NCBI GenBank assembly: GCA_000961585.1
Contig: LADN01000020.1
Coordinates: 1-64,000, forward strand
Source of the DNA: Peptococcaceae bacterium BRH_c4a
GTDB lineage: Bacteria; Bacillota; Desulfotomaculia; Desulfotomaculales; Desulfocucumaceae
DNA length: 64,000 nt
Direction: 5' to 3'
A program made the translations under genes and the position numbers. This document shows positions 634 to 44,098 of the stretch, piece by piece. Below the pieces are notes generated by a model. The model was not told where the DNA came from. It did no database searches and worked only from the letters and a program-made list of their open reading frames with translations. Position 1 is the stretch's first letter. Each line of letters opens with the position of its first letter.

Positions 634-924
634 ATGCAGATTAAGCCGTCCGCAAGTATCCGGCAGAACTACAATGAGATAGCGGATTTGTGCAGATCTA
701 CAGGTGAGCCGGTGTATCTTACCAAAAACGGCGAGGGCGATCTCGTGGTGATGGATATAGGAGCGTTTACCCGCCGTGAAAAAATGCTGAAGCTGCGAGA
801 AGAACTGCTGGCCGTCGAGGAAGACCGTTTGGCCGGACGCGCCGGAACAACGCCGGATGAACTGGACAGCTATCTGGACAGCATCATTGACGAGGTGGAA
901 CATGGAAAAGAAGCCTCAGTATAA
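634..924 (+). CDS. type II antitoxin, Phd/YefM family
   Basis: This 96-residue protein starts MQIKPSASIRQNYNEIADLC, the typical Phd/YefM N-terminal fold that binds DNA and represses the operon. The middle carries the YLTKNGEGDLVVMDI strand seen in this family, and the acidic C-terminal tail (DELDSYLDSIIDEVEHG) is the expected toxin-binding part. It overlaps the downstream toxin gene by 23 bp, so the two are translationally coupled. It neutralises the toxin by direct binding; free antitoxin is usually unstable. A good sigma-A-type promoter and repeated GGTTAGAA motifs lie just upstream. Confidence 0.9.
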   Translation: MQIKPSASIRQNYNEIADLCRSTGEPVYLTKNGEGDLVVMDIGAFTRREKMLKLREELLAVEEDRLAGRAGTTPDELDSYLDSIIDEVEHGKEASV

Positions 925-1219
925 GGTGATTATTTCCGATTGCGCCCGCCAAATGCTGGCTGTCCATATCCGATTTCTGGCACAGAAAAGTCCCACCGCC
1001 GCCCGCAAAATCAAAAACGACCTGATGGACGCCATCCGTTCCCTGCACCAAATGCCGGAGCGTTTCCCCTTTCTGGAGGCCGAGTTTATTCCGCCAAACA
1101 AATACCACAAGATGTTCATTGAGAAATGGTATCTTATTTTATACCAAGTTAAGGATCAGACGGTATACGTTGACTACATCATGGATTGCAGGAAGGATTA
1201 TGGATGGCTGGTACGGTAG
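902..1219 (+). CDS. type II toxin, RelE/ParE superfamily
   Basis: This is a 105-residue protein when started at the ATG at 902 (MEKKPQYKVIISDCARQML), which fits toxin family length better than an upstream in-frame start inside the antitoxin. It shows the RelE/ParE pattern: an N-terminal strand, two helices (SPTAARKIKNDLMDAIRSL), a MPERFPFLE segment, and the C-terminal strands KWYLILYQVKDQTVYVDYIM. Members either cleave mRNA at the ribosome or poison gyrase, and which applies cannot be told from sequence. It overlaps the antitoxin gene and is probably expressed only as part of that operon. It appears full length. Confidence 0.88.
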   Translation: MEKKPQYKVIISDCARQMLAVHIRFLAQKSPTAARKIKNDLMDAIRSLHQMPERFPFLEAEFIPPNKYHKMFIEKWYLILYQVKDQTVYVDYIMDCRKDYGWLVR

Positions 1220-1894: not shown

Positions 1895-2143
1895 ATGACT
1901 GTGAAAAATCAAGAATATTACGAGCAGCTTTTTGAGCCGCATCCTGATGTCGTTACACTGGATGAATTCAGAGCCATGTTGGGCGGCATCGGAGAGACCA
2001 CGGCACGAAAAATTTTGCATGGAAATCATATAAAGTATTTTTTTATCCGCAGTGCCTACAGGATACCTAAAGTATGGGTTATTGAGTATGTGCTAAGCGA
2101 CCATTACGCCCAATACCGGCAAGAGCTAAAAGTACAGGTTTAG
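1895..2143 (+). CDS. small helix-turn-helix protein, excisionase-like
   Basis: This 82-residue protein starts at the ATG at 1895, preceded by TAGGAGCTG as ribosome binding site. Residues about 17-65 (VVTLDEFRAMLGGIGETTAR, then KILHGNHIKYFFIRSAYRIPKVWVIEYV) match the short winged helix-turn-helix of Xis/AlpA-type proteins from integrative elements: a helix-turn-helix, a wing with the arginine-isoleucine-proline turn, then a short helix. Such proteins bend attachment-site DNA to direct excision or act as transcriptional switches. Its position just inside the candidate attL supports an excision role. A terminator hairpin follows. Confidence 0.7.
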   Translation: MTVKNQEYYEQLFEPHPDVVTLDEFRAMLGGIGETTARKILHGNHIKYFFIRSAYRIPKVWVIEYVLSDHYAQYRQELKVQV

Positions 2144-2332: not shown

Positions 2333-2435
2333 TATAGACGCAGAGATAATTTCTATGTATTTAGAGATTATCTCTTGAAAAATGAGGAAACAAATGGTAT
2401 TTTTATAAAGGAGAAATGTTGCGAGGTGTAAAATA

Positions 2436-2651
2436 TTGCAAGTTAGCTATAAAAAACTTTGGAAATTATTAATTGATAAAAATATGAAAAAGACAGACTT
2501 GCAATTAGCAACTGGAATAAGTGCAGGTTCATTAGCTAAGCTCGGAAAAAATGAAACAGTTTCTATGGATACTTTGATACGCATATGTACAGCACTTTCG
2601 TGTGACGTAGGTGATATCATAGAATTTATAAACGAAAATAAGATTGATTAG
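2436..2651 (+). CDS. Cro/CI (XRE)-type helix-turn-helix regulator
   Basis: This 71-residue protein starts with TTG at 2436; GCGAGGTG 8 bp upstream is the ribosome binding site. The sequence KKTDLQLATGISAGSLAKLG then KNETVSMDTLIRICTALSCDVGDIIEF is a complete single-domain Cro/CI fold of the YozG-like type, with helix-turn-helix at about residues 20-45. It lies 127 bp before the cytosine methylase on the same strand and is as AT-rich as the cassette. That is the usual place for a controller protein that delays restriction until methylation is established, although such a role is inferred and not shown. Confidence 0.85.
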   Translation: MQVSYKKLWKLLIDKNMKKTDLQLATGISAGSLAKLGKNETVSMDTLIRICTALSCDVGDIIEFINENKID

Positions 2652-2727
2652 ATAAGAAATTTATGATAAATTTTTATATTTTTCTGGGAGTGGGTCTAGG
2701 ACCTCGGTTTTGAAAATACTGACAGGA

Positions 2728-2755
2728 TTGCTTTGCTGGCAATGAGCTATATAAA
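2728..2755 (+). promoter_or_regulatory. candidate promoter of the defence operon
   Basis: TTGCTT at 2728-2733, a 16-bp spacer and TATAAA at 2750-2755 lie 24 bp before the methylase start. The hairpin word GGTCTAGGACC lies further upstream at about 2693-2703. Confidence 0.45.
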
Positions 2756-2778
2756 GATAACAGGAGTATCAACAAATA

Positions 2779-3942
2779 ATGAGCATAGAAAAGAAATCAA
2801 AGAACAATACATTAAAAGTATTTGAAGCATTTGCTGGAATCGGAGCGCAGGCAACAGCATTCAAAAGATTAAATATTAACTATGAAATTGTTGGAATCAG
2901 CGAATGGTTTGTCAACGCAATTATTTGTTATGATGCTATTCACTGTTCCGATAAAGAAATTGAAATACCTGTTTATGAAGAACAATTAGGATACTTAAAT
3001 CAATTCCAATTTAGCGGTGATTCTATGCACCCAATTAAAAAGATCAAAGCACTTGGGAGGAATGTAATAGAACAACTGTATATAGCAAATAAGAGGAGCA
3101 ATAATTACGGCTCGATTACGCAACTTTATGGATGGCAAATGCCTGAAACAGATTTGCTTGTATATAGTTTTCCGTGTCAGGACCTGTCTACTGGCGGAAA
3201 AGCTTTAGGTATGAAAAAAGGTTCAGGCACCCGTTCGGGTCTGTTATGGGAAATAGAGCGAATTTTACTTGAGCTTAAAGATTTAAACCGGTTACCGGAG
3301 TACCTTTTACTTGAAAATGTAAAAAACATACTTGCTGAAGTGAACAAAACTGATTTGAATGCATGGCTTAACTTTTTAACTTCTATAGGATATCAAAATG
3401 ATGAATTTATGATGTTGGATGCAACTGATTTCGGTGTGCCGCAAGACCGTCAAAGGGCATTTCTAGTAAGCCATCTAGGTTCTAAAACCGATGTTGAAAA
3501 GAAAATTATTAAACAGGAAAAAAATTTTGATATTTTAAAATTTTTGAGGACCGATTATGAAAATCCGGTATACAGGCATGAAGCTGATATTGCACAGCTT
3601 AACCGAACTCCTTCCCGTGAAGTAATGTGGAAAAAGAATGGCAGAGAAATCAATGACAATACAATAATTCATACTATCACCTGTAATATGGACAGAACCA
3701 ATACTGCTGCGCTTTTTAGATATATAGGAGCCAAAGGGGATACATACAGACGTCTTACTATCCGTGAAGCTTTCCTGTTAATGGGATTTACTGAGGAAGA
3801 ATATGAAAAAACCATGTGTCTGGAGTTTAGTTACCGGCAAATGAATAAACTGATTGGAAATTCAATAGTTGTCAATATACTTGTCGAGATCTTCCGTTCA
3901 CTTTTCAGTGAAAAGTATGGCAAGGAGGATTCTTGTGAATAA
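2779..3942 (+). CDS. dcm: DNA (cytosine-5) methyltransferase
   Basis: This 387-residue enzyme transfers a methyl group from S-adenosylmethionine to C5 of cytosine. Motif I (VFEAFAGIGAQ, residues about 13-23) binds the cofactor. Motif IV (SFPCQDLS) contains the catalytic Cys near residue 133. Motif VI (LLENV) has its Glu near 179. QDRQRAFLVS is motif VIII, and QMNKLIGNSIVVNIL near the C-terminus is motif X. The variable target-recognition segment lies around residues 255-320. It opens a same-strand cassette with a MutL-like ATPase, Z1 protein, DUF4420, AIPR and Vsr, and presumably marks self DNA. The target sequence cannot be read from the protein. The start at 2779 has only a weak AGGAG (2761) upstream. 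Confidence 0.95.
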   Translation: MSIEKKSKNNTLKVFEAFAGIGAQATAFKRLNINYEIVGISEWFVNAIICYDAIHCSDKEIEIPVYEEQLGYLNQFQFSGDSMHPIKKIKALGRNVIEQLYIANKRSNNYGSITQLYGWQMPETDLLVYSFPCQDLSTGGKALGMKKGSGTRSGLLWEIERILLELKDLNRLPEYLLLENVKNILAEVNKTDLNAWLNFLTSIGYQNDEFMMLDATDFGVPQDRQRAFLVSHLGSKTDVEKKIIKQEKNFDILKFLRTDYENPVYRHEADIAQLNRTPSREVMWKKNGREINDNTIIHTITCNMDRTNTAALFRYIGAKGDTYRRLTIREAFLLMGFTEEEYEKTMCLEFSYRQMNKLIGNSIVVNILVEIFRSLFSEKYGKEDSCE

Positions 3943-4033
3943 AATAATTCTTCCAATAGATACGAAGTCTCTTCACTACAATATAAAAAACGAACAAATC
4001 AAGACACACAGCGACAGTGTCAACGCCTCTTAA
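3935..4033 (+). CDS. possible 32-residue open frame between methylase and ATPase
   Basis: A GTG at 3935 lies 6 bp after AAGGAGGA, an excellent ribosome binding site inside the end of the methylase gene, and opens a 32-codon frame (starting MNKIILPIDTKSLHYNIKNE). It overlaps the methylase stop. The strong ribosome binding site suggests that a longer gene once started here and was cut short; the next 100 bp have no coding features. It could also be a real small protein. I do not recognise it. Confidence 0.35.
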   Translation: MNKIILPIDTKSLHYNIKNEQIKTHSDSVNAS

Positions 4034-4132
4034 GCAGGATAGTTCACACCGTAAGGCTTTAGGAAAGATATATCTTTAGCGCCTTGTCCAAAAGAATCAA
4101 CTCAATTATGTACATAGATGGCGAGGACACTT

Positions 4133-5590
4133 ATGGGTAGAATAATTGAAAAAGATCCGCCGGCAAAATCTTTGATTTTTGGAATCAGGGCAATTGGCTA
4201 CAGCTTTTCAACTGCTGTAGCAGATATTATAGATAACAGTATTTCAGCCGGCGCAAAACGTATTGACATAATTTCTGACCCCCTTGAGGAATCAACCTAT
4301 TTTGAATTTATTGATAACGGTTGCGGTATGGATCAACCGGAACTTGAGAATGCAATGCTTTTAGGATCTGACCGTATGGGTAAGCCCGATAGTGATATTG
4401 AACTTGGCAGGTACGGTTTGGGATTGAAGTCTGCTTCCCTATCGCAGTGCCGGGAATTTATAGTTGCCAGCAAAAAAGACGGACAGGTTAATGCAATGTC
4501 TTTCGATCTTGATTTGATTGAAAAAGACAATAAATGGTATCTGAAGATTCTCGATGGTGAAGAGATAGAAGACTTACCTAATATCGAGGGGTTGCTTCAA
4601 TACGAAACCGGAACACTTGTTATATGGAAAAAGTTTGATAAACTTGAGAGTCTGGCTAAAAATTTTGAAGATTCTTTTAGGTCTTCTGTTGCTAATTCAA
4701 AAAAACACGTCGAATTTGTTTTTCACCGTTTTTATAACAGTATTGATATTTATTTTAATTACAAGCGTATTGAGGAACGCGATCCGTTTCTACGTGCCTC
4801 TGTTGGCAGGCAGCAAACAGGATATACTGAAAGACTAAATATTGACGGATGTACAATTGCCATAACTCCATATGCACTTCCATTCTGGAATACGTTGACT
4901 GACGAAGAAAAGAGATTGCTCGGTAATCCAAAGAGCATATATGACGATCAGGGTTTTTATCTCTACAGGAACAGGCGATTAATTTTGTGGGGCAGTTGGC
5001 TCCGAATGGGTGTTAAAAGCGAACTTAATAAGTTGGCTCGGGTTCAAGTGGATATCCCTTCGGCCTTGGACTCTGTTTGGATGCTTGATGTTAAAAAATC
5101 ATCAGCTAAAATCCCCGATAAAATTAAAGATGAACTCAGAGCATCAATTAACGATTCTGAACTGAGAAGTAAAAAAACAGTTAAATTCCCAGGTATTAAG
5201 GAACAGATAGCAATAAACAAAATATGGGAAAGACGGATTAATGCACATAGCAACACAGTACGTTATGAAATAAACAGAAACAACCCTGTTATTACCGCGC
5301 TATATGAAGCAATTGGAGAGAACGAAACCATGCTACTTGAGGCTTTACTTTCACAGTTGGAGTGTTATATACCCAAATTTTCAATTCAGAATGACATTGC
5401 TGATTCTATTAAGATTGTAAACAGCGGTGATGACATTGAAGAAGAAAGGCTAATTAATGAGTTAATTAATGTCATTTCCATGGTAAGTCCTGAAGAAAAA
5501 GAAAAGAAACTTAATATGTTATTATCTATTGAAGCATATCAAAAATTAGCTAATAAACGCGAAGAAGTAATTAAAGAGGTGCTGGGATGA
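4133..5590 (+). CDS. MutL/MORC-like GHKL ATPase of a Mza-type defence cassette
   Basis: The GHKL (Bergerat) ATP-binding fold fills the N-terminal part: VADIIDNSISAGAKRIDI (N box), FIDNGCGMD (second ATP motif with the DxGxG pattern) and GRYGLGLKSASLS (ATP lid). Remaining residues include a probable S5-like transducer (around YERLNIDGCTIAITPY in this protein's middle) and a helical C-terminal tail. This matches the MutL/MORC-like ATPases known from restriction-type clusters with Z1 helicases. The longest frame starts at 4118, but the ATG at 4133 has GCGAGGAC ideally placed, so 485 residues is the likelier product. The stop overlaps the next ATG (ATGA), so coupling to the Z1 gene is expected. 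ATP-driven dimer clamping on DNA is the family model. Confidence 0.85.
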   Translation: MGRIIEKDPPAKSLIFGIRAIGYSFSTAVADIIDNSISAGAKRIDIISDPLEESTYFEFIDNGCGMDQPELENAMLLGSDRMGKPDSDIELGRYGLGLKSASLSQCREFIVASKKDGQVNAMSFDLDLIEKDNKWYLKILDGEEIEDLPNIEGLLQYETGTLVIWKKFDKLESLAKNFEDSFRSSVANSKKHVEFVFHRFYNSIDIYFNYKRIEERDPFLRASVGRQQTGYTERLNIDGCTIAITPYALPFWNTLTDEEKRLLGNPKSIYDDQGFYLYRNRRLILWGSWLRMGVKSELNKLARVQVDIPSALDSVWMLDVKKSSAKIPDKIKDELRASINDSELRSKKTVKFPGIKEQIAINKIWERRINAHSNTVRYEINRNNPVITALYEAIGENETMLLEALLSQLECYIPKFSIQNDIADSIKIVNSGDDIEEERLINELINVISMVSPEEKEKKLNMLLSIEAYQKLANKREEVIKEVLG

Positions 5591-8409
5591 ATGATGAAAT
5601 TATTAGTTTGATTAATGAACCGCTTATTAAAAAAGCATACAACATACTCGATATTCTGTTGGAAGGATCTAAGCATACACATACGGATACGGTAAAGTAT
5701 GCTACGTCTGTTGTAAGCGATATGCTTAAAATACCGAGAAACATTCCGGAATTTAAAGAATTGGTTGATATTATCGTTAGCAAGTATGAAAGCAATGTTG
5801 GAATCAAGGTTTTTGACCCTGACATTATTGTTGAAGATCCGAATAGCGGTCTGTGGCTAAAGAAAAAGAAAGATGAAATAAGCCACAGTTACTTTTCGCG
5901 ATACCGGCACTATCTGTTTAACGATGAAGGCTTTAGCGGAACTGTTATTGACAATATTGAGGCAAGCTGTGAAAAAGCACTATCTTACTGCGCTGACCCC
6001 GTAAACTTTGCGGATATTGCAAACAGAAAAAAGCGCGGGTTGATAGTCGGTGATGTTCAGTCCGGAAAAACAGCCAACTATCTAGGCCTGATCAGTATGG
6101 CATGCGATTACGGATATAAAGTAATTGTTTTACTTGCCGGGCTGACGGATTCCCTCCGTAAACAGACACAGAAGCGTGTTGATACCGGATTTATTGGCGC
6201 TTACAGTAATACGATCGGTAACATAATCAAATATGTCGGTGTAGGAATAAGCAATAAAGATCATTATGCTATTCCATTAACAAACTCAGATAACGATTTT
6301 GCAAAATTCGTCCAAGAGAATTTAAATGCAACTGCTGGCGACTTTAATAAGCCCGTTGTTCTTGTTATTAAAAAGAATGCTAAAATTCTTGAAAGTGTCG
6401 AAAAATGGCTTAGACCCGGGAAGAACAATATCTCCGGTAAAAATGTTCTTATAATAGATGACGAGGCAGACAATGCTTCCGTAAACACTAAAAAGCCAGA
6501 TCAAGATCCGTCAACGATTAATAAATATATCAGAAAGATATACAACAACTTTCCAATTGCATCATACGTAGGATTCACTGCAACTCCGTTTGCAAATATA
6601 TTCATTAATCCAGACGATACGGATGAAGCGGATCAAGATCTTTTTCCTGCTGATTTTATCGTTCAATTAAAGGCTCCGGATAATTACTTTGGAGGAGGAA
6701 ATATTTTTCCGCTTGATGGAAGTGGTTCAAGAGCATTACGGAAACTAGATGAAAATGAGTCGAATTTTCTCCCTGTGAGTCATAAGAAGGATGTTGCGTT
6801 TGGCGAATTGCCTGAGAGTTTAAAAGAGGCAATTTTATGTTTTTTGATTAACAATGTTATTCGTACAAAGCGCGGGCAGGTAACAAAGCACCGTTCCATG
6901 ATGATAAATATCTCCAAATATAACGATCCGCAAGAGAGTATCAGATTCTGTGTTGATAAATATTTGGAAATAATACAAAACATCATAGAGCAAGACAGTT
7001 ATAAACCGGTACAGGAATTTATCAAGAACGGGGAAATGAAGAAACTGTATTCACTATATACGCATGGTGATGCAACAAAAGTTGATTTTTATAAGGATAT
7101 TCGGGAAGAAATTTCTTGGGAAGAAATACAGAACGGCCTTGAAAGTGAAATTAAACAGTTTGTTACTGCAATAATAAATAACCGCTATAAAGGTGACATG
7201 CGATTTGATTATGAAAATTACGGTAAGAAAGGTGCAAGAGTTATTGCAATAGGCGGATTTGTGCTTTCGCGTGGACTGACGCTTGAAGGCTTAATGGTTA
7301 GTTATTATAGCCGAAATGCAGGAGCGTATGATACTTTGCTTCAGATGTGCCGTTGGTTTGGCTATCGACCGAAATACGATGATCTTTGCAGAATATACAT
7401 ATCTCAAACCAATATTGACAGTTTTTTTGCGGTTTTGGATGCTGTCAGAGACTTGAAGGAACAGTTTACTGAAATGGCTTTAAGAAATAAGAAACCCAGA
7501 GATTTTGGATTAATGATTAAAGAATCCCCGGAGATATTGGAGACCACTTTGTTAATAACAAGCCGGAATAAAATGCGCAGTACGGATATATTGTCACTCT
7601 ATTTAAATTACGGCGGTGTGTACACAGATACATCCAAATTATTCAGAAATCCGTCATTAAATATTAAAAACCGTAATGCGTTTGACGCATTTGTACAAAC
7701 TCATTTTGAAAAAGGAAAAGTTCTTAATCATCAGATAAATACAAATCGCTATATGTTCACCGACGTTGACAAAGAGGATATTGCAGCTCTTCTAAAAAGG
7801 GTTGTAATTCCGTATGAAAATAAAAAATTTGATACCGAAAGTTTAAGCGAATATATAGCGGAAAGTGAGCAATTCAAATTCTGGGATGTTGTTGTTGCAA
7901 CCGGTAAATCAAATCAGAAATATAGAGTTACAAACGGAGTTTTAATTAATGCGGTAGAGCGTAGTTTCCATCTGGGGAAAGGTGAAAACTTTATTAGAAT
8001 TGGCGGGTCCAATAACCGTATTATTGATCCTGGTATTTTTAATAGCGGACTCGATTTGTCAAAGGATTTTATTGAAGATTTCCTAAAGAGAAAGAAAAAT
8101 GAAAACCCTGATAAAAACTGTGAAGAACTCACCGCAAAAGACTATTTGAAAATCCGTACTAAACCTCTCCTCGCGATCTATCCTATAGACCTCAAAAATG
8201 ACAGCAATGAGGACTGCGAAGCAATGAAAGCAGAAAAAACTGTGATTAAGGAGAGTTTTGGCACTGAACTCTTAATCGGCTTTGCTATTGGTTTTCCTGA
8301 AAAGGAATCAAAGGCTATTGTACAATACCGTGCGAATAGAGTTAAACTTGATCAGTTAACCAAGGACAATGATGTTGACGAAGACGAGGAGGAACTCGAA
8401 GATGATTGA
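5587..8409 (+). CDS. Z1-domain helicase-like ATPase of the defence cassette
   Basis: This 940-residue protein has a superfamily II helicase core. Walker A is GDVQSGKTANYLGLISMA (residue about 155), Walker B is IIDDEADNAS (about 290), GFTATPFANI (about 330) resembles motif III, and QMCRWFGYR (about 595) is an arginine-finger motif. The region between about 400 and 640 is the Z1 domain (PF10593-like), found almost only beside MutL/MORC-like ATPases in restriction and anti-phage clusters. The role is probably ATP-driven translocation or remodelling of invading DNA with the partner nuclease. It overlaps its upstream neighbour by 4 bp and its downstream neighbour by 8 bp, which indicates a tight operon. 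The acidic C-terminus (DNDVDEDEEELEDD) is notable. Confidence 0.88.
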   Translation: MNDEIISLINEPLIKKAYNILDILLEGSKHTHTDTVKYATSVVSDMLKIPRNIPEFKELVDIIVSKYESNVGIKVFDPDIIVEDPNSGLWLKKKKDEISHSYFSRYRHYLFNDEGFSGTVIDNIEASCEKALSYCADPVNFADIANRKKRGLIVGDVQSGKTANYLGLISMACDYGYKVIVLLAGLTDSLRKQTQKRVDTGFIGAYSNTIGNIIKYVGVGISNKDHYAIPLTNSDNDFAKFVQENLNATAGDFNKPVVLVIKKNAKILESVEKWLRPGKNNISGKNVLIIDDEADNASVNTKKPDQDPSTINKYIRKIYNNFPIASYVGFTATPFANIFINPDDTDEADQDLFPADFIVQLKAPDNYFGGGNIFPLDGSGSRALRKLDENESNFLPVSHKKDVAFGELPESLKEAILCFLINNVIRTKRGQVTKHRSMMINISKYNDPQESIRFCVDKYLEIIQNIIEQDSYKPVQEFIKNGEMKKLYSLYTHGDATKVDFYKDIREEISWEEIQNGLESEIKQFVTAIINNRYKGDMRFDYENYGKKGARVIAIGGFVLSRGLTLEGLMVSYYSRNAGAYDTLLQMCRWFGYRPKYDDLCRIYISQTNIDSFFAVLDAVRDLKEQFTEMALRNKKPRDFGLMIKESPEILETTLLITSRNKMRSTDILSLYLNYGGVYTDTSKLFRNPSLNIKNRNAFDAFVQTHFEKGKVLNHQINTNRYMFTDVDKEDIAALLKRVVIPYENKKFDTESLSEYIAESEQFKFWDVVVATGKSNQKYRVTNGVLINAVERSFHLGKGENFIRIGGSNNRIIDPGIFNSGLDLSKDFIEDFLKRKKNENPDKNCEELTAKDYLKIRTKPLLAIYPIDLKNDSNEDCEAMKAEKTVIKESFGTELLIGFAIGFPEKESKAIVQYRANRVKLDQLTKDNDVDEDEEELEDD

Positions 8410-9331
8410 TTTTATGAATATGTACTCAGATCTCGAAAAAGATCTTTTAGGAAATCAGAAAAAGCTAATGATTTCATCTTCACTTAGTGTTTATTACGGA
8501 ATTAACGGCGATGGCAATTTTAGATTGTCTTTTATGTCATCGGTCATTCCTCCAAAGATGGAATCAACTAAGTTGCTGAAAGTGTCGCAGTTTGAGGAAA
8601 GTGATGCTGTTTATTGGACATGCTTTGACCTGATGCAGTCCACAGCCAAGCAAGTGTTTTATACTTTTTGCGGAGATATTGTCAGTTCAGTTTACGATAT
8701 TCAGGATGAGCATAAAGCTCTTATACTGTTAAAAAACCGTTTTCATACATGGAAAAGCATGTTTAAGCGTGACATAAGCAAAATTACCGATGAAATGATC
8801 AAAGGACTGCTTGGCGAACTGTATTTTTTGAGGGAATTTATGATTGTAAAATACGGTATTGATGATGCGATTGAAATATGGAGCGGTCCTGACGGAGCAA
8901 ATAAAGATTTTTCAAAAGGTACTGACTGGTATGAGGTTAAAACAGTATCTGCGAACATGATAAGTGTCAAAATATCGTCGGTAACTCAACTTTCCTCGGC
9001 TACTCCGGGTCACTTAGCAATTATCCGGCTTGAATCAATGTCTTCACAATTTGAAGATGGTCAGTCAAGTGTAGGCGAGTTATTCCAATCAGTTTTACGA
9101 TTGATTGAAGCGGATGAAACCAGAGAGAAATTCTTGGAAAAATTAATTTCATACGGATTTGATCTTTCGGATGATTGCTGTAATGTAAAGTATAAAATTC
9201 TGTCTTGTACGCTGTACAAAGTGGACGATGAATTTCCCAGGATACAGGAAACTGATGTTAAATTTCAGGAAATATGCAAATTGAGTTATGAACTTATTAT
9301 AAATGCCCTTGAGAGATTCAGAGAGGAATAG
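8402..9331 (+). CDS. PD-(D/E)XK-type protein (DUF4420/PF14390-like)
   Basis: I place the start at the ATG at 8402, behind GAGGAGGAACTCGAAG, rather than the longer frame from 8369, giving 309 residues. GLLGELYFLREFMI (about residue 138) followed by GPDGANKDFSKGTDWYEVKT has the shape of a PD-(D/E)XK nuclease site: an early glutamate, a D in NKDF, and E-x-K in YEVKT. This layout is the mark of the DUF4420 family, which accompanies Z1 proteins in the same clusters. It is the most likely DNA-cutting subunit. It overlaps the Z1 gene by 8 bp and is 5 bp from the next gene. Confidence 0.8.
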   Translation: MIDFMNMYSDLEKDLLGNQKKLMISSSLSVYYGINGDGNFRLSFMSSVIPPKMESTKLLKVSQFEESDAVYWTCFDLMQSTAKQVFYTFCGDIVSSVYDIQDEHKALILLKNRFHTWKSMFKRDISKITDEMIKGLLGELYFLREFMIVKYGIDDAIEIWSGPDGANKDFSKGTDWYEVKTVSANMISVKISSVTQLSSATPGHLAIIRLESMSSQFEDGQSSVGELFQSVLRLIEADETREKFLEKLISYGFDLSDDCCNVKYKILSCTLYKVDDEFPRIQETDVKFQEICKLSYELIINALERFREE

Positions 9332-9336
9332 GCACC

Positions 9337-11424
9337 ATGGAACTGAATGAATACAGAGAATATGTTATTAACCAAATTAAGGCTACCGCTATCGAAGAAC
9401 AAAGATATCCCTATGAGGTTTTTATTGATTTTGTCGCTGACATTATGGTTAGTGATTATTCTATGTTCTCTGGTATTGAACAGTGCTATTTCTCTCTATC
9501 AACAGGCAATAAGTCATTTAAGAGTATGCACATTGATGCAGGTTCTCTAGAGCTTTCAACCAATACTCTTAATTTAATGATTGCCGATTTTAATGACGGT
9601 AAGCTTGCGAATATAAACAGCAGTGATGTTAACGCTTCAATCGCATCCATGATAAATTATTTTGAAAACTGTCTTAAAGGATTCTTTGTATCTGCAGAGC
9701 AATCAGATCCTGCTGTACAGTTAGCTATTGAAACAAGAAGAAATCTCGAATCTATTTATAAGCTACATCTGTTTATTGCCGGTACCGATCAGCTTAGTAA
9801 GAGGGTTAAGAATATAGAACTGAAAGACTTTACATTTAAGGGCAAAACATTTAAAGTCGAGCTTGATATAGTAGACATTGTTAAGATATTTAATGCGCAA
9901 TTAGCAACTTCGGAAAAGGAAGATATTATAATTGATGTTACTGACTTTAATATTTCCGGTATTCAGTGTATTAGGGCAGACATAAATTCACAAAACTATG
10001 AGGCATATCTCGCGGTTGTTCCTGGAAGTTTTTTGTCAGATATTTATAAGAAATACGGTCCGCGGCTTCTTGAAGGAAATGTACGTTCATTTTTGCAGTT
10101 GCGTGGCGGAGTAAACAAAGGTATCCGCGGAACCATCCTTAACGAACGCGAAAAATTCTTTACATACAATAACGGAATTTCAACAACTGCCAAAAGCATC
10201 GAATTAAAAGAAATACAGGGTAAAGGTTTGTGCATTACCTCTTTTAAAGATTTTCAGATAATAAACGGAGGACAAACAACAGCATCTTTGGCCTCTGCGA
10301 CGATAAAGGATAATGCACTTTTGGACGGAATATTTGTCCAAATGAAGCTGACAATAGTAAAAAATGAAGATGCTGAATTTATTCGCAACATTTCTCGGTA
10401 TGCCAACAGCCAAAATAAAGTTACAGCGGCTGACCTTAACTCCAACCATCCTTTCTACAACCGTATTGAAGAATATTCCCGCAAGATTTATGCTCCGGCC
10501 GTAAATAATCAAACATATCAAACTATATGGTTTTTTGAACGTTCCAGAGGTCAGTATGATCAGCCCAAGATGAAAATGACAAAGAGTGAACGTGCGACAT
10601 ATGAAAGAATCAACCCCAACAGTCAGAAATTTGATAAGACGGATTTGGCAAAGTACATTAATTCAGATGAAATGAAGCCTTACGATGTTGCGTGGGGTAA
10701 AGAAATCAATGCGACTAGATTCCAAGCTGAAATGGAAAAACAGTGGGAGAAGAACGATTCGGTATTTAATGAATCATACTACCGCGACCTTATTGCAAAA
10801 GCTATAACCTTTGGAACTATTCGAAAAACAATACTGGGTTTAGAATGGTATAAAGAAAACAAAGGATATTTAATTCAGTTGGTTACTTATTCTTTTGCAA
10901 AACTAATATATGAAATTACAAAACTGAAGAAATTTATAAATTACAAGTATATATGGGACAAGCAGGAATTGCCAGATTTTATTATTGAAGATGTTGCCGG
11001 TATTGCTAAATTGGCTGCTGAAACATTTTATGATCCAAGCAGAACAAACGGTAATATAGAAACTTACTGTAAGTCCAAGGTATGCTGGGATAATTTAAGT
11101 GCTAAAATATACAATCTCTCGGATAAAACTAAAGCATTTTTAAAAGAAGAAGATGAAATAAAGATTGAAAAAATACATGCTAAAAAAGAACAAAAGTTTA
11201 ATAACAGTCTTAACATTGAAATTCAAGTATTTACATTAGGCTCTGAATATTGGAAAAGATTGATGGAAACTGGCAGTGCACAAAAATTACTTACTCAGAT
11301 GGATATAAAAGATTTACAGGATGCAATTGCTTACTGCAACGGCGTTAAATCATTGCAACCTTATCAGTTCTCCCGAATTTGGGCAATTAGAACGAAGCTG
11401 GGAGAAGCTCAGGTGCCGATATAA
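9337..11424 (+). CDS. AIPR (abortive infection phage resistance) family protein
   Basis: This 695-residue protein contains the AIPR core (PF10592-like): LQLRGGVNKGIRGTILNE, then FFTYNNGIS and FQIINGGQTTASL at residues about 250-320, followed by the FIRNISRYANSQNKV segment. It is also flanked by the other members typical of the Mza layout. AIPR proteins are linked to abortive infection against phages, and their biochemical action is still poorly defined. The ATG at 9337 has AGAGAGGAATAG close upstream, and the gap to the preceding stop is only 5 bp. The C-terminal third is lysine-rich and helical. Full length is likely. Confidence 0.88.
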   Translation: MELNEYREYVINQIKATAIEEQRYPYEVFIDFVADIMVSDYSMFSGIEQCYFSLSTGNKSFKSMHIDAGSLELSTNTLNLMIADFNDGKLANINSSDVNASIASMINYFENCLKGFFVSAEQSDPAVQLAIETRRNLESIYKLHLFIAGTDQLSKRVKNIELKDFTFKGKTFKVELDIVDIVKIFNAQLATSEKEDIIIDVTDFNISGIQCIRADINSQNYEAYLAVVPGSFLSDIYKKYGPRLLEGNVRSFLQLRGGVNKGIRGTILNEREKFFTYNNGISTTAKSIELKEIQGKGLCITSFKDFQIINGGQTTASLASATIKDNALLDGIFVQMKLTIVKNEDAEFIRNISRYANSQNKVTAADLNSNHPFYNRIEEYSRKIYAPAVNNQTYQTIWFFERSRGQYDQPKMKMTKSERATYERINPNSQKFDKTDLAKYINSDEMKPYDVAWGKEINATRFQAEMEKQWEKNDSVFNESYYRDLIAKAITFGTIRKTILGLEWYKENKGYLIQLVTYSFAKLIYEITKLKKFINYKYIWDKQELPDFIIEDVAGIAKLAAETFYDPSRTNGNIETYCKSKVCWDNLSAKIYNLSDKTKAFLKEEDEIKIEKIHAKKEQKFNNSLNIEIQVFTLGSEYWKRLMETGSAQKLLTQMDIKDLQDAIAYCNGVKSLQPYQFSRIWAIRTKLGEAQVPI

Positions 11425-11444
11425 TCAGAAGCGAGATAATATAA

Positions 11445-11861
11445 ATGGATAACCGTTCTAAAGAAAAGCGAAGTAAAAATATGTCCCATATAAAAAGCAA
11501 AGGTACAAAACCGGAGGAAACAGTTTGTAAGTATCTGTTCTCGCAGGGCTTTCGATACAGAAAAAACGTTAAAGATCTTCCCGGTCATCCGGATATAGTT
11601 TTGCCTAAATATAAAGTAGCTGTGTTTGTCAACGGGTGTTATTGGCATGGTCATGAAGGCTGTAAATACTTTGTCCTTCCAAAAAGCAACGTTGATTTTT
11701 GGTTAAATAAAATTGAGTACAATAAACGGAGAGATAAAGCAAATCACGAAAAGCTTGAACAGCTTGGGTGGAATGTGCTCACTGTTTGGGAATGTGAGAT
11801 ACGGCATGGAGACAAAGAAAAAGCACTATCAAATTTAGTTGACCAGATAAGATCTGTTTAG
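11445..11861 (+). CDS. vsr: very short patch repair (Vsr) mismatch endonuclease
   Basis: This 138-residue protein opens with RSKNMSHIKSKGTKPEETV, the Vsr N-terminal DNA-binding part. It then has RKNVKDLPGHPDIVLPKYKV, with the catalytic Asp in PDIV, and VFVNGCYWHGHEGCKYF, with Cys/His zinc ligands and catalytic His. Vsr nicks beside T:G mismatches that arise when 5-methylcytosine deaminates, so its presence beside a C5 methylase is functionally coherent: it repairs damage caused by the methylase. It lies 20 bp after AIPR and ends the cassette, with hairpins following. It is the expected length. Confidence 0.95.
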   Translation: MDNRSKEKRSKNMSHIKSKGTKPEETVCKYLFSQGFRYRKNVKDLPGHPDIVLPKYKVAVFVNGCYWHGHEGCKYFVLPKSNVDFWLNKIEYNKRRDKANHEKLEQLGWNVLTVWECEIRHGDKEKALSNLVDQIRSV

Positions 11862-12030
11862 GATAGAGCATGGTATGAAAGAGAGTGATCAAAATAAGGA
11901 AAATGCCGTGCAGTTAAGAAACAGTACGGCTGAGTTTTTAATTTTGCTTTACAGGCCAGCGAAAAAATAGCCCTTTATTCAGTAAATGCCATATATCTAA
12001 TTGTAGACTCAACTAATGGGAAGCATATAT
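11862..12030. other. non-coding spacer between vsr and parA remnant
   Basis: No gene is seen. GCCGT (11905-11909) and ACGGC (11926-11930), followed by TGAGTTTTTA, form a weak terminator for the defence operon. Confidence 0.4.
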
Positions 12031-12072
12031 AGCCGTTTGCTTTATTATCCCGATAAAGCAGGCGGCTTTTTT
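12031..12072 (+). terminator. strong rho-independent terminator upstream of parA remnant
   Basis: AGCCG and GCTTTAT pair with ATAAAGC and CGGCT around a short loop, followed by a T run at 12066-12071. It stops transcription before the ParA ribosome binding site (AAAGGAGGAA, 12078-12087). Confidence 0.8.
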
Positions 12073-12093
12073 GCGTGAAAGGAGGAATTTCAA

Positions 12094-12570
12094 GTGTCAA
12101 AAGTAATCGCCCTTGCCAACCAGAAAGGCGGCACGGGCAAAACGACCACAACGGTCAATCTGGGGATCGGTCTTGCGATGCAGGGTAAAAAGGTGCTTTT
12201 AGTGGATGCGGACGCGCAAGGCTACTTAACAGATTCGTTGGGCTTCCATGAGCCGGACAATCTGCTTGTTTCATTGGCGACCGTTTTAACCAAAAGCATG
12301 TTGGAGGAACCGTATGAACCTGATGAGGGGATCCTCGGCCATTCGGAAGGTGTTGACCTCATGCCGGGCAACATTGAGTTGTCGGCCATTGAGGTTTCCC
12401 TCGTCAACACCATGAGCCGGGAAACGGTGCTGCGCAGCTACATCAACACCGTCAAAGACAGGTATGATTATGTGCTGATCGACTGCATGCCCTCACTGGG
12501 CATGATGACCATCAACGCTCTTGCCGCCGCGGACAGCGTAATTATTCCGGTTCAGGCCCATTATCTGAAT
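12094..12570 (+). pseudogene. ParA/Soj-type ATPase, truncated by IS21-like DNA
   Basis: The GTG at 12094, behind AAAGGAGG, opens a clear ParA: ALANQKGGTGKTTTTVNLGI is the deviant Walker A, KKVLLVDADAQGYLTDSLG is A' and YDYVLIDCMPSLGMMTINAL is Walker B. The match ends at VIIPVQAHYL (about 12570), just where the family should continue with PLKGMEQL-type helices; the frame then runs into insertion-sequence DNA and stops at 12648. About 159 of roughly 255 residues survive, so segregation function is probably lost. ParA genes are common near the end of integrative elements, together with ParB and relaxase genes that are missing here. Confidence 0.88.
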
Positions 12571-13484
12571 AATCCGGTTCAGAATGAGCCATTGTTCCGG
12601 AAAGATAGAGCCATTTCTCCGGACAAAAAGAGCCACTGTTCTGTTTAGGGAGCCACTCGATGATTTTCCTTGTAGAATCGAATTATGCACTATCCCCGAG
12701 ATAGTGTAAATAATTTACAAGGGGGTCATCATATGACCAATTATCGAGAGATCCTGCGGCTTCACAGCCTGGGGGTCAGTGGGCGCAGCATCGCTGCCAG
12801 CTGTGCCTGCTCAAGAAACACCGTTTCCAAAGTACTAAAACGGGCGCAGGAACTTAATGTGACATGGCCGTTAAAAGAAGGGATCTCGGATAGTGAGCTG
12901 CATCAGATACTCTTTCCGGAGGTCACCCAACCATCATCAAGAAAACGACCTGACTATGACTACATACACAAAGAGATGGCTAAAAGCGGGGTCACACTAA
13001 GTCTGCTTTGGAATGAATACTGTGAGACCTGCCGTCTCAGCAAGGAGATTCCGCTCCAGTATTCCCAGTTTTGCTATCACTATCAGCAATACACCCACAA
13101 AACCAAAGCAACAATGCATATCCACCGCAAGCCGGGTGAACAGCTAGAAGTTGATTGGGCTGGACAAACAGCTTCCCTGGTGGACAGCGACACCGGTGAA
13201 ATCATTAATGCCTTCATCTTCGTAGGTGTCCTCTCCAGCAGTCAGTATGCCTATGTTGAGGCATTTTTGTCTCAGAATCAGGAGTGCTGGATAGCAGCTC
13301 ATGCCAATATGTATAAGTTCTTTGGTGGCGTTACCAGGATTCTAATCCCAGACAATCTTAAGACCGGAGTGGAAAAGTCCTCCTGGGATTCCCCGACCAT
13401 TAACCGGATTTATCAGGAAATGGCAGAGCACTATGGCACCGCCGTAATTCCTGCCCGGGTCAGAAGACCAAAAGATTATACCGA
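12571..13484 (+). mobile_element. IS21-family element, left part only
   Basis: Between the truncated parA and unrelated DNA at about 13485 lies the left end of an IS21-type element. Short repeated words (AGAGCCATTTCTCCGGA, AGAGCCACTGTTCT and GGGAGCCACTCGATG at 12609-12664) have the look of the multiple subterminal repeats of IS21 ends. They are followed by istA. The right part, including istB, is absent. Confidence 0.75.
12733..13484 (+). pseudogene. istA: IstA transposase of IS21 family, C-terminally truncated
   Basis: From the ATG at 12733 (behind CAAGGGGGTCATC) the frame gives the IstA helix-turn-helix (GVSGRSIAASCACSRNTVSK) and the DDE integrase core: QLEVDWAGQTASLVD holds the first catalytic Asp and RILIPDNLKTGVEK the second. 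Homology ends at about RVRRPKD (codon 251), before the catalytic Glu; the open frame then continues 33 codons through unrelated sequence to 13584. No istB follows. The enzyme is therefore dead. The insertion destroyed parA and was later cut itself. Confidence 0.88.
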
Positions 13485-13561
13485 AGATTTTGTTATCCCG
13501 AATACTTCGCTGAAAAGCGCTTATATGCGCTTTCCAATGCCAATTCTTCGGGATAACAGTT

Positions 13562-13800
13562 TCACCTTAATCCGCAGAGTTTGAGGATCATATCTTCATC
13601 GCCTTCCCAAATTGGCAGTTCAGATGTTGCATTTCCTTTACTCGCTGCTTTTTCCAGCGCGTCTTTAATCATCGAAGTATCAGCGTATGCATATATGCTC
13701 GTCGTTGTTGAGCTAACATGACCAAGAAAATCTTTTATGTATGAAAGCGGAATGCCAGACTGGTATAGGTGCATGGCTCGGCTATGGCGCTTATGGGGAG
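13562..13800 (-). pseudogene. tyrosine recombinase C-terminal fragment (reverse strand)
   Basis: On the reverse strand, from the palindrome centre, the frame reads HKRHSRAMHLYQSGIPLSYI followed by KDFLGHVSSTTTSIYAYADT, the C-terminal catalytic part of a phage-type integrase. It has the HxxR box (here H-K-R-H, lacking the usual Leu), the LGH histidine and the nucleophilic Tyr in SIYAYAD. The N-terminal core-binding domain and first catalytic Arg are missing. This type resembles the integrases that come in trios. The fragment cannot be active. Confidence 0.8.
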
Positions 13801-13820
13801 CTCCCCATAAGCGCCATAGC
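13781..13820. repeat. perfect 40-bp palindrome at an integrase fusion point
   Basis: Bases 13781-13800 and 13801-13820 are exact reverse complements with no spacer. The palindrome encodes the HxLRHS-type motif of an integrase on both strands, and each copy lacks the Leu codon. It joins two different integrase C-termini head to head. Confidence 0.92.
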
Positions 13821-13980
13821 TGCGCCAGTTTGTTGTACGCCAACGGCGTCAGCCTGAAAGAGATCCAGGAGTGGTTGGGGCACAGTGATATTTCCACCAC
13901 CTCGAACATCTACACCCACCTGGATTTCAGCTCCAAGGTCGCTTCGGCCAACGCCATCATCGGCGTATATCCCTCCTGAC
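13801..13980 (+). pseudogene. tyrosine recombinase C-terminal fragment (forward strand)
   Basis: To the right of the palindrome centre, the forward strand reads HKRHSCASLLYANGVSLKEI followed by QEWLGHSDISTTSNIYTHLD: the C-terminal part of a second, different tyrosine integrase with the R box, the LGH histidine and the nucleophile Tyr in NIYTHLD. The stop is at 13978-13980, 170 bp from the 3' end of an intact tRNA-Leu, the classic place for an element integrase. Everything upstream of the R box is missing, so it is inactive. An inverted GGAGGGATAT motif spans its last codons. Confidence 0.82.
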
Positions 13981-14150: not shown

Positions 14151-14236
14151 TGGTGCCGATGGCCGGAGTCGAACCGGCATGGAGGTTATCCGCCGCATTT
14201 TGAGTGCGGTGCGTCTGCCAATTCCGCCACATCGGC
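14151..14236 (-). tRNA. tRNA-Leu (anticodon CAA)
   Basis: This is an 86-nt class II tRNA on the reverse strand. The acceptor stem GCCGATG pairs with CATCGGC, followed by encoded CCA. The anticodon loop CTCAAAA is closed by CCGCA/TGCGG, and there is a long variable arm and a T-arm GCCGG/CCGGC with TTCGACT. It is complete and probably functional. It lies directly beside integrase remnants and 160 bp from a second, broken tRNA-Leu. Confidence 0.95.
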
Positions 14237-14730: not shown

Positions 14731-14867
14731 TTTTTCGTTAAGGAAAGTATATACCATATTAAAGTATTAAAGCGCTAAATCGCCAAAGCATTTTTATGTA
14801 GCCCAGAGTTTTTCTGGGTCGCTCCGGGGTCACTTGAGGGTCGCTGCATTGTCGCAAATGGGTAGGT
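14731..14867. repeat. left flank module of structured repeat, copy 1
   Basis: The words TTTCGTTAAGGAAAGTATAT, TTAAAGTATTAAAGCGCTAA and CCCAGAGTTTTTCTGGG in this stretch recur inverted at about 61255-61345, and in part at 61455-61512, beside copy 3. The CCCAGA/TCTGGG hairpin is near 14802-14818. It belongs to a longer dispersed intergenic element. Confidence 0.6.
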
Positions 14868-15076
14868 GGAGCGATTTAAGTCCGGCCTGCATAACCTCCT
14901 TCTGCAACTGTCTCTAGACTCGGTCGCCAACGGAATGCCGACCGCCTCCAACGCCGCATCCATGCGTCGATTCCGGCTTCCGGCTGCGTCCTGCAGCCGA
15001 CTCGGCATTCCATAGGCTCGGTCGTTAAGAGACAGTAGCAGCCTCCGGTACATTCCGCACGGACTTAAATCACTCC
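14868..15076. repeat. 209-bp structured repeat, copy 1
   Basis: The outer arms GGAGCGATTTAAGTCCG (14868-14884) and CGGACTTAAATCACTCC (15060-15076) pair with one C/A mismatch that becomes a G-U pair in the reverse-strand RNA. Inside, CTGTCTCT pairs with AGAGACAG, GGAATGCCGA with TCGGCATTCC, and CGGCTGC with GCAGCCG. Copy 2 (19368-19576) is nearly identical; copy 3 (61016-61224) has paired changes in the same stems. It lies about 300 bp before the sigma-factor gene. Confidence 0.88.
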
Positions 15077-15206
15077 CCCTCACTGCATGTCGCTGTGGGG
15101 TCGCTTGAGGGTCGCTTTTAAGGCAGGCTGTCACAATTCTGGATTCTCAAGCGTCCTTCAGGGCGTTTTTTAAATCTCTGTGTTCTCTGTGACCTCTGTG
15201 GCTAAT

Positions 15207-43003: not shown

Positions 43004-44098
43004 ATGAGCGAGCAATTAAAGGCCGAAGGCGTTAAGGATCTCATTGAAAAAGGCAAGAAAAACGGTGTTCTGACCTACACTGAGATTATGGATATACTGC
43101 AGGGAACGGATTTGACGCCGGAACAGATAGATGAAATATATGAGAAACTTGGCGGCATGGGCATAGAGGTTGTTCCTGAAGTGACCGATATTGATCCCCT
43201 TAATGAAGGGTCTGCCCTGGAGCCTCAGGCCGAGGAGGCTGACATCGACCTTACAATACCTGAGGGCGTGGGAATAGATGATCCCGTGCGTATGTACCTA
43301 AAGGAAATCGGTCGCGTTCCCCTGCTTTCTCCCGAAGATGAGGTAAAACTCGCCAAGCGTATGGAGCAGGGTGACGAAGAGGCAAAGAGGAAGCTGGCGG
43401 AGGCCAATCTCCGTTTGGTGGTGAGCATCGCCAAACGATACGTAGGCCGGGGTATGCTTTTTTTGGACCTGATACAGGAGGGCAACCTTGGACTTATAAA
43501 GGCGGTTGAAAAATTCGACTTCCGTAAGGGTTTTAAATTCAGCACCTATGCCACCTGGTGGATCCGCCAGGCCATTACCCGGGCCATTGCAGACCAGGCC
43601 AGAACTATCCGTATACCCGTACACATGGTGGAAACCATAAACAAGCTGATCAGGGTTTCCCGGCAGCTATTGCAGGAATATGGCCGGGAGCCGTCTCCCG
43701 ATGAAATTGCCAGGGAAATGGGCATAACAGAGGAAAAAGTCCGGGAAATTATGAAGATAGCCCAGGAGCCGGTTTCTCTGGAAACCCCCATTGGTGAGGA
43801 AGAGGATTCACATCTGGGTGATTTTATCGAGGACCATGACGCCAGGGCTCCAGCCGAGGAAGCCTCCTTCACCCTGCTGCGGGAACAACTGGACGAGGTT
43901 CTGAAAACGCTGACAGACCGGGAACAAAAGGTGCTGCGCCTGAGGTTCGGACTGGATGACGGCAGAGCCAGAACACTGGAGGAAGTGGGGCAGAAATTCG
44001 GCGTTACCAGGGAGCGGATAAGGCAGATAGAGGCCAAAACCCTCCGTAAGCTGAGGCACCCCAGCCGAAGCAAGAAACTCAAGGATTACCTGGATTAA
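43004..44098 (+). CDS. sigA: RNA polymerase primary sigma factor SigA (RpoD)
   Basis: The ATG at 43004, after AGGGGGAAAG, gives 364 residues. Region 1.1 is reduced to an acidic N-terminal stretch. Region 1.2 is [20 protein letters not shown]. Region 2 has [20 protein letters not shown] and [20 protein letters not shown]. Region 3 is [20 protein letters not shown]. Region 4 has [20 protein letters not shown], the -35 helix-turn-helix. This is the housekeeping sigma factor. A terminator follows, then a tRNA cluster. Confidence 0.98.

What the first reader, a model, noticed from the sequence alone, without database searches (positions are those of the whole stretch)
2436..11861. Complete Mza/MORC-type defence cassette with an added Vsr and a Cro-type regulator
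C5 methylase, MutL/MORC-like ATPase, Z1 protein, DUF4420 PD-(D/E)XK protein and AIPR follow one another with overlaps of 4-8 bp or gaps of a few bases. This set is known from MORC-type restriction clusters and the Mza anti-phage system, so the core is not new. The tail-end vsr and the leading regulator are additions: Vsr would repair deaminated methylated sites made by the methylase, and the regulator could time restriction.
Basis: partly seen in the sequence, partly recalled or inferred. Interest (0 to 1): 0.6.

Follow-up and report, generated by a model that had tools for sequence, protein, structure and literature searches.

The report
Known MORC–Z1 restriction cassette carrying Vsr
This is a horizontally acquired bacterial DNA-restriction cassette of an already described kind; the repair gene vsr at its end is a usual member of such cassettes rather than an addition, while another gene that most of its closest relatives carry survives here only as a broken remnant.

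Summary
All seven genes are there, but spacing is not uniformly tight and the cassette is not 'complete'. The set fits the MORC/Z1-helicase restriction-modification clusters of Iyer et al. 2008 and the 'type II' putative defence system of Miller et al. 2022. It is not Mza in the strict sense: the sigma factor MzaA is absent and the B–E homologues score far below NCBI's cut-offs. Vsr is no addition: it lies within 3.5 kb of 52 of 69 comparable cassettes with full flanks, the window's Vsr is most like other cassette-borne Vsrs, and VSR genes were reported in MORC neighbourhoods in 2008. A regulator was reported with this system in 2022. In the window X is a 204-nt frameshifted, internally deleted remnant, which explains an odd 190-bp gap. 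Tandem palindromes beside the regulator's promoter suggest controller-type autoregulation. Defence function and the repair role of Vsr are inferred. New member of a known kind.

The parts
2342..2375 (.). Two tandem palindromes (2342-2354 and 2363-2375, 21 bp centre to centre), candidate operators of the regulator
   Evidence: Only such pair in the 64-kb window; 4 of 5000 Markov sequences have one; motif criteria set after seeing it. Not seen by eye upstream of L020 or L100
2375..2403 (+). Promoter-like site TTGAAA-17-TATTTT, abutting the second palindrome
   Evidence: 2 promoter-like sites found against 3.2 expected, so weak alone
2436..2651 (+). HTH_26 Cro/C1-type regulator, 71 aa, TTG start (start agrees with L020 and L100 homologues)
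2779..3942 (+). C5 cytosine DNA methyltransferase, motifs PC, ENV, QxR, GN intact
3935..4138 (+). Remnant of gene X: N-terminal part in two frames plus C-terminal end; about 830 nt missing; its stop overlaps the ATPase start
   Evidence: Own genome with the X profile: E 1.1e-7 (3960-4076, one stop) and 1.5e-4 (3941-4027); E 7.6e-6; C-terminal block second best of 127,924 window 13-mers; three-frame translation
4133..5590 (+). MORC/MzaB-type GHKL+S5 ATPase (longest ORF from ATG 4118)
5587..8409 (+). Z1 protein: SF2-type helicase/ATPase, MzaC-like, with DTLLQMCRWFG motif
8402..9331 (+). DUF4420 PD-(D/E)XK nuclease, MzaD-like
   Evidence: E150, E189, K191 conserved
9337..11424 (+). AIPR protein, MzaE-like
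11445..11861 (+). Vsr mismatch endonuclease, D50 and H68 conserved in 80 of 80
   Evidence: (152 bits, cut-off 97.85)
12031..12067 (+). Terminator-like hairpin after vsr, with those at 2165-2196 and 2296-2328 bracketing the cassette
   Evidence: 3 found against 5.5 expected in 2430-12100, so weak alone

Best explanation
A horizontally acquired restriction-modification cassette of the MORC + Z1-helicase type. The C5 methylase marks host DNA. The Z1 helicase-like ATPase, MORC clamp/looping ATPase, DUF4420 nuclease and AIPR protein together attack DNA lacking the mark. Vsr, a normal member of these cassettes, nicks T:G mismatches left when methylated cytosines deaminate and so keeps sites intact. 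The small HTH regulator probably controls its own promoter, and perhaps the operon, through two tandem palindromes. The cassette belongs to a sub-lineage with methylase first and a further gene X (C-terminal PD-(D/E)XK-like fold, (D/E)xK position lost) between methylase and ATPase; here X is destroyed, while the other genes are open. Shown: gene content, order, conserved catalytic residues, recurrence of Vsr, loss of X, foreign composition. Inferred: restriction of phage DNA, division of labour, repair by Vsr, autoregulation, that X is dispensable.
For: Family matches. Active-site residues of MORC (102 loci), DUF4420 (108), MTase (116) and Vsr (80) conserved in the window. Core set together in 96 of 107 loci with Z1 over 600 bits; MTase within 3.5 kb in 94 of 96, Vsr in 74 of 96 (52 of 69 with at least 3 kb on both sides). 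In one draw of 398 phylum genomes, 7 of 10 with Z1 have Vsr, all within about 6 kb, against 29 of 388 without Z1 (Fisher p 2.8e-6). The 15 best blastp rows for the window's Vsr, and more, lie beside Z1 genes; the first row not so placed is at 51%. Cassette GC 0.362 against 0.501 for 14600-64000; only 1 other of 113 genomes of the order has a related ATPase, at 35%. X intact in 7 of 132 other loci, all in the window's clade; remnant in the window. Literature: PMC2292703 section 4, PMC9523054 section 11.
Against: No experiment on this locus or clade. The Vsr survey is not independent: loci are the best-scoring relatives of one protein, several near-identical. In the window's own clade Vsr accompanies only 2 of 8 core loci (window and L022, the latter a divergent Vsr upstream). 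Loss of X might mean a decaying cassette; sister locus L020 also lacks X, which argues the other way. The palindrome test was post hoc. The MTase's recognition site, and whether Vsr acts on it, are unknown.
Confidence: 0.77

Rival explanations
1. It is a true Mza anti-phage system (mzaABCDE) with extra genes.
For: Order B-C-D-E kept; PADLOC MzaB, MzaC, MzaE E-values 4.5e-63, 5.2e-107, 2.7e-62.
Against: MzaA is a sigma-70 factor and the best own-genome match is the housekeeping RpoD at window 43022-44098; NCBIfam scores 246/850, 429/1500, 77/420, 255/1050; Miller et al. call such systems about 20% identical to mzaBCDE.
Confidence: 0.06
2. Vsr is a chance neighbour captured by the island.
For: 6 of the 7 other core loci of the window's clade lack any Vsr nearby; a 20-bp gap separates it from AIPR.
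Against: Vsr recurs beside 52 of 69 full-flank cassettes; nearest Vsr rows are cassette-borne; same strand, with a terminator-like hairpin after it.
Confidence: 0.08
3. The cassette is dying: loss of X has broken it and the rest has not yet decayed.
For: X frameshifted and deleted; X kept in 7 of 9 clade loci.
Against: All other frames, up to 940 codons, are open with conserved active sites; sister L020 lacks X with its other genes open.
Confidence: 0.15
4. Vsr is not a repair enzyme here but a nuclease of the restriction complex, stimulated by the MORC ATPase as Vsr is by MutL.
For: MutL stimulates Vsr in vitro (PMC6116569, passages read); Vsr recurs beside MORC cassettes.
Against: Vsr also sits beside Z1 loci without a MORC hit over 300 bits (L016, L019, L131, L132, L133, L135, L138, L139), so it tracks Z1 and methylase rather than MORC.
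Confidence: 0.07

Closest known systems
MORC restriction-modification neighbourhoods, third helicase type (Iyer, Abhiman and Aravind 2008, PMC2292703)
   Same: MORC ATPase with S5 motif, helicase with DThhQXuRhFG motif, RE-fold nuclease, cytosine methylase, AIPR, VSR
   Different: HTH regulator leads; remnant of gene X between methylase and ATPase
Putative defence system type II of Miller et al. 2022 (PMC9523054)
   Same: Z1 (about 925 aa), PD-(D/E)XK DUF protein, C5 methylase, AIPR, MORC, putative transcriptional regulator
   Different: Vsr at the end; the section read ties DNA-repair endonucleases to type I only; figure and tables not held, so the subtype cannot be told
mzaABCDE anti-phage system (Gao et al. 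2020; paper not held, known here from NCBIfam/PADLOC names and Miller et al.)
   Same: B-C-D-E order and families
   Different: No MzaA sigma factor; homologues far below cut-offs; methylase, Vsr and HTH present
Controller (C) proteins of type II R-M systems (recalled)
   Same: Small HTH protein leading the cassette; tandem palindromes beside its promoter
   Different: HTH_26 family; operators untested and not seen in L020 or L100

Membership tests
MORC/Z1-helicase R-M cluster (Iyer 2008) | MORC GHKL+S5 ATPase with GhXhhpXXRhl motif | tested here: met
   GFYLYRNRRLI read by eye from the sequence (motif); ATP-site residues conserved in 102 loci; solved relatives are eukaryotic MORCs, E 1.2e-9
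MORC/Z1-helicase R-M cluster (Iyer 2008) | SF2 helicase with DThhQXuRhFG motif | tested here: met
   DTLLQMCRWFG (motif)
MORC/Z1-helicase R-M cluster (Iyer 2008) | RE-fold nuclease with E-D-ExK | tested here: met
   DUF4420 match; E150 108/108, E189 104/108, K191 107/108; the acidic D between them could not be fixed, D186 only 9/108
MORC/Z1-helicase R-M cluster (Iyer 2008) | Cytosine methylase and VSR as frequent companions | tested here: met
MORC/Z1-helicase R-M cluster (Iyer 2008) | Restriction of unmodified DNA | not testable with these tools
   Needs experiment
Mza (mzaABCDE) | MzaA sigma-70 factor in the cassette | tested here: not met
Mza (mzaABCDE) | MzaB-E above NCBIfam equivalog cut-offs | tested here: not met
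   246/850, 429/1500, 77/420, 255/1050
Mza (mzaABCDE) | Gene order B-C-D-E | tested here: met
Type II putative system of Miller et al. 2022 | Z1 + DUF nuclease + C5 MTase + AIPR, with MORC and a regulator | tested here: met
   (the paper writes DUF4220; I take it for DUF4420)
Vsr endonuclease | Family score and catalytic D and H | tested here: met
   TIGR00632 152 bits, cut-off 97.85; D50, H68 in 80/80; that these are the catalytic residues is recalled
Vsr endonuclease | Cuts T:G mismatches in the partner MTase's motif | not testable with these tools
   MTase motif unknown
R-M controller (C) protein | Tandem operators at its own promoter | tested here: inconclusive
   Palindromes 2342-2375, post hoc; not seen in L020 or L100
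CG-specific M.MpeI/M.SssI-type methylase | CG-reading loops of M.MpeI conserved | tested here: inconclusive
   M.MpeI is the closest solved relative (E 4e-43) but the recognition domain aligns poorly; identity of 4dkj/8c56 as M.MpeI is recalled

The most novel reading that the evidence does not exclude
A sub-lineage of these cassettes has an extra, unnamed component X: an N-terminal beta-rich part and a PD-(D/E)XK-like domain without the (D/E)xK pair. It would be a DNA-reading or restraining subunit translationally coupled to methylase and ATPase, and it can be lost, with Vsr present in its absence as here. The window would be a natural deletion mutant showing that the restriction machine is modular.
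Probability: 0.3. Interest if true: 0.42.

Novelty: new member of a known kind. Interest (0 to 1): 0.26.

Why it matters
It corrects a naming shortcut (Mza without MzaA), gives a count for Vsr in these cassettes so that later readers do not take it for an addition, and points to an undescribed clade-specific gene whose presence or absence could be tested in a clean comparison: clade members with X against the window and Kineothrix alysoides, which lack it.

Tried and rejected
X as a known named family: not found at the thresholds used. Pfam gave only a sub-cut-off NO VEIN C-terminal match (E 0.0031) and weaker unrelated ones, PADLOC nothing, PHROGs nothing for L100's X, no plasmid or phage record, one viral contig, the same contig as L100, and no convincing intact copy in 397 other phylum genomes (one weak hit, 4.9e-4, inside a 1098-aa frame). 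Miller's type I has three additional genes that I could not see; X could be one of them. No library of predicted cellular structures was searched.

The X model (pLDDT 78.7) gives no Foldseek match below 0.001. VIA-align puts residues 221-336 on PD-(D/E)XK folds at Z up to 9.0 (3.5 A, 107 residues; SPARDA, Hjc, RecU), near the typical best for models without a match, so the fold call is moderate. The reading of the (D/E)xK position (IVR, IVK, LVF, MVF) is from alignment, by eye.

A CG-depletion look at the MTase's specificity was uninformative: CG observed/expected 0.73 in 14600-64000 and 1.03 in the cassette. An empty tRNA-Leu site was not shown: a 13-nt string is shared at 1591 and 14396, but ARAGORN calls no tRNA in the joined flanks. 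Exchange of X for Vsr was considered and not supported: of 8 core clade loci, 5 have X alone, 1 both, 1 Vsr alone, 1 neither.

The first score test of the X C-terminus was placed one base too late and showed nothing; the corrected one gave 1 of 3000 shuffles at or above the observed score, and one unrelated window 13-mer scores higher. The inverted-repeat search upstream of the regulator did not report the palindromes; they were seen by eye and tested post hoc.

Dropped rows: of 133 loci scanned (132 fetched and the window), 107 have Z1 over 600 bits, 96 of these hold the core on one strand, and 69 of these have at least 3 kb on both sides. The scan of genome contigs kept the best 80 of 419 relatives. 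The short loci L001-L010 were replaced by longer stretches L011-L019 and the window. The phylum Vsr search listed 36 genomes; 29 Vsr proteins from its returned loci entered the comparison, one of them the window's own, which was left out of the target set.

Full report
What is there. Seven genes on the + strand from 2436 to 11861 encode a Cro/C1-type HTH protein, a C5 methylase, a GHKL ATPase, a Z1 protein, a DUF4420 nuclease, an AIPR protein and Vsr. The ATPase has the ATP-site residues found in all 102 aligned ATPases (GT-box threonine 101 of 102), Vsr has D50 and H68 as in 80 of 80, the methylase has its PC and ENV motifs, and DUF4420 has its E and ExK residues. The cassette is 36.2% G+C against 50.1% for 14600-64000. 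Of 113 genomes of the same order only one other has a related ATPase, at 35% identity. It is most likely foreign DNA.

Spacing. The start at 4133 is supported by comparison with relatives and by the overlap with the old X stop.

Survey. Of 133 loci including the window, 107 have Z1 over 600 bits, and 96 of these have ATPase, Z1, DUF4420 and AIPR on one strand. A methylase lies within 3.5 kb in 94 of 96 and Vsr in 74 of 96; with at least 3 kb of sequence on both sides the figures are 68 and 52 of 69. The regulator type of the window is rarer: 4 of 96 core loci (by these are the window, L020, L035 and L111), plus L100, which is cut, and Z1 loci without a MORC hit (L131, L132, L138, L139, L140). 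The loci are not independent of one another and were chosen by similarity to one protein.

A less biased check: in one draw of 398 phylum genomes (the window's own included), 10 have Z1 and 36 have Vsr; 7 of the 10 have both, always within about 6 kb, against 29 of 388 without Z1 (Fisher p 2.8e-6). Against all these Vsr proteins the window's Vsr is most like Vsrs that lie beside Z1 genes: 62% identity to L067's, and the best 15 rows all lie beside a Z1 gene. In the Vsr tree it joins 16 such rows, nearly all from Bacillota or viral contigs, at 100/89, with rough bootstrap values. So Vsr belongs to this kind of cassette.

A lost gene. The closest relatives form one clade (Z1 45-57% identical; clade support 100 and the window beside Kineothrix alysoides L020 at 98 in the Z1 tree). 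Here the methylase comes first, and in seven of nine loci (L021-L026, L100) a gene of about 343 aa, X, lies between methylase and ATPase. L020 has no X. In the window the 204 nt from 3935 to 4138 keep the beginning of X in two reading frames and, less surely, its last codons, with about 830 nt gone. The X profile finds nothing else in the genome. X has no named family at the thresholds used. Its model has a C-terminal part on the PD-(D/E)XK fold, at moderate confidence, and the position of the (D/E)xK pair is not kept.

Regulation. Two palindromes, AGAGATAATTTCT and AGAGATTATCTCT, lie 21 bp apart at 2342 and 2363, and the second touches a promoter-like TTGAAA-17-TATTTT. That is the layout of controller-protein operators in R-M systems (recalled). 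Such a pair arises in 4 of 5000 Markov sequences, but the criteria were set after seeing it. L020 and L100 show no such pair by eye; their recognition helices differ, so different sites would be expected. Terminator-like hairpins lie before (2165-2196, 2296-2328) and after (12031-12067) the cassette.

Methylase. The closest solved protein is 8c56/4dkj (E 4e-43), which I recall as the CG-specific M.MpeI. The target-recognition part aligns poorly, so CG specificity is not implied. Within the clade this part is well conserved, which suggests a shared site.

What is known. Iyer et al. 2008 (PMC2292703; section 4 and passages read) describe MORC operons with a third helicase type bearing DThhQXuRhFG, an RE-fold nuclease, methylases and VSR. 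Miller et al. 2022 (PMC9523054; section 11 and passages read; author name recalled) describe the Z1, PD-(D/E)XK and cytosine methylase core, with AIPR, MORC and a putative regulator in type II, about 20% identical to mzaBCDE. Mza itself needs MzaA, a sigma factor (name), which is absent: the best genome match is RpoD at window 43022-44098. Gao et al. 2020 was not held.

Mechanism. Most likely the methylase protects host sites and the Z1, MORC, DUF4420 and AIPR proteins attack unmarked DNA, Vsr repairs T:G mismatches from deamination, and the HTH protein sets expression. MutL stimulates Vsr in vitro in Neisseria (PMC6116569, passages read), but Vsr tracks Z1 and methylase even where MORC is missing, so a MORC-driven Vsr nuclease is the less likely reading. 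None of the functional steps has been shown for this locus.

Verdict. A new member of a known kind; the two features that made it look new are usual or already reported. The new detail is the clade-specific gene X and its destruction here.

Noticed in passing
window 634-1219: Phd/YefM-type antitoxin and ParE-type toxin pair upstream of the cassette.
   Followed up: no
window 1895-2143: 82-aa small protein, excisionase-like by eye, with no match in Pfam or PHROGs.
   Followed up: partly
window 12094-13976: ParA-type ATPase ending soon before an rve-domain transposase-like ORF, and two tyrosine-integrase C-terminal fragments on opposite strands around a 27-nt inverted repeat at 13774-13827: debris of a mobile element.
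   Followed up: partly
window 1591 and 14396: 13-nt string shared inside tRNA-Leu-like stretches on both sides of the cassette, 12.8 kb apart; a tRNA-Leu gene lies at 14151-14236. Joined flanks are not called a tRNA.
   Followed up: partly
L131, L132, L138, L139, L140: Viral contigs with the same HTH type, Z1 and C5 methylase but no MORC, DUF4420 or AIPR hit; four of the five also have Vsr: perhaps a smaller relative system.
   Followed up: no
L030, L032, L081: Cassettes with two C5 methylases side by side; two of the three lack Vsr.
   Followed up: no
L057 15726-17933: A second, divergent AIPR gene directly after the first.
   Followed up: no
window 14818-15116: 28-nt direct repeats (GTCGCT-rich) in three copies.
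   Followed up: no
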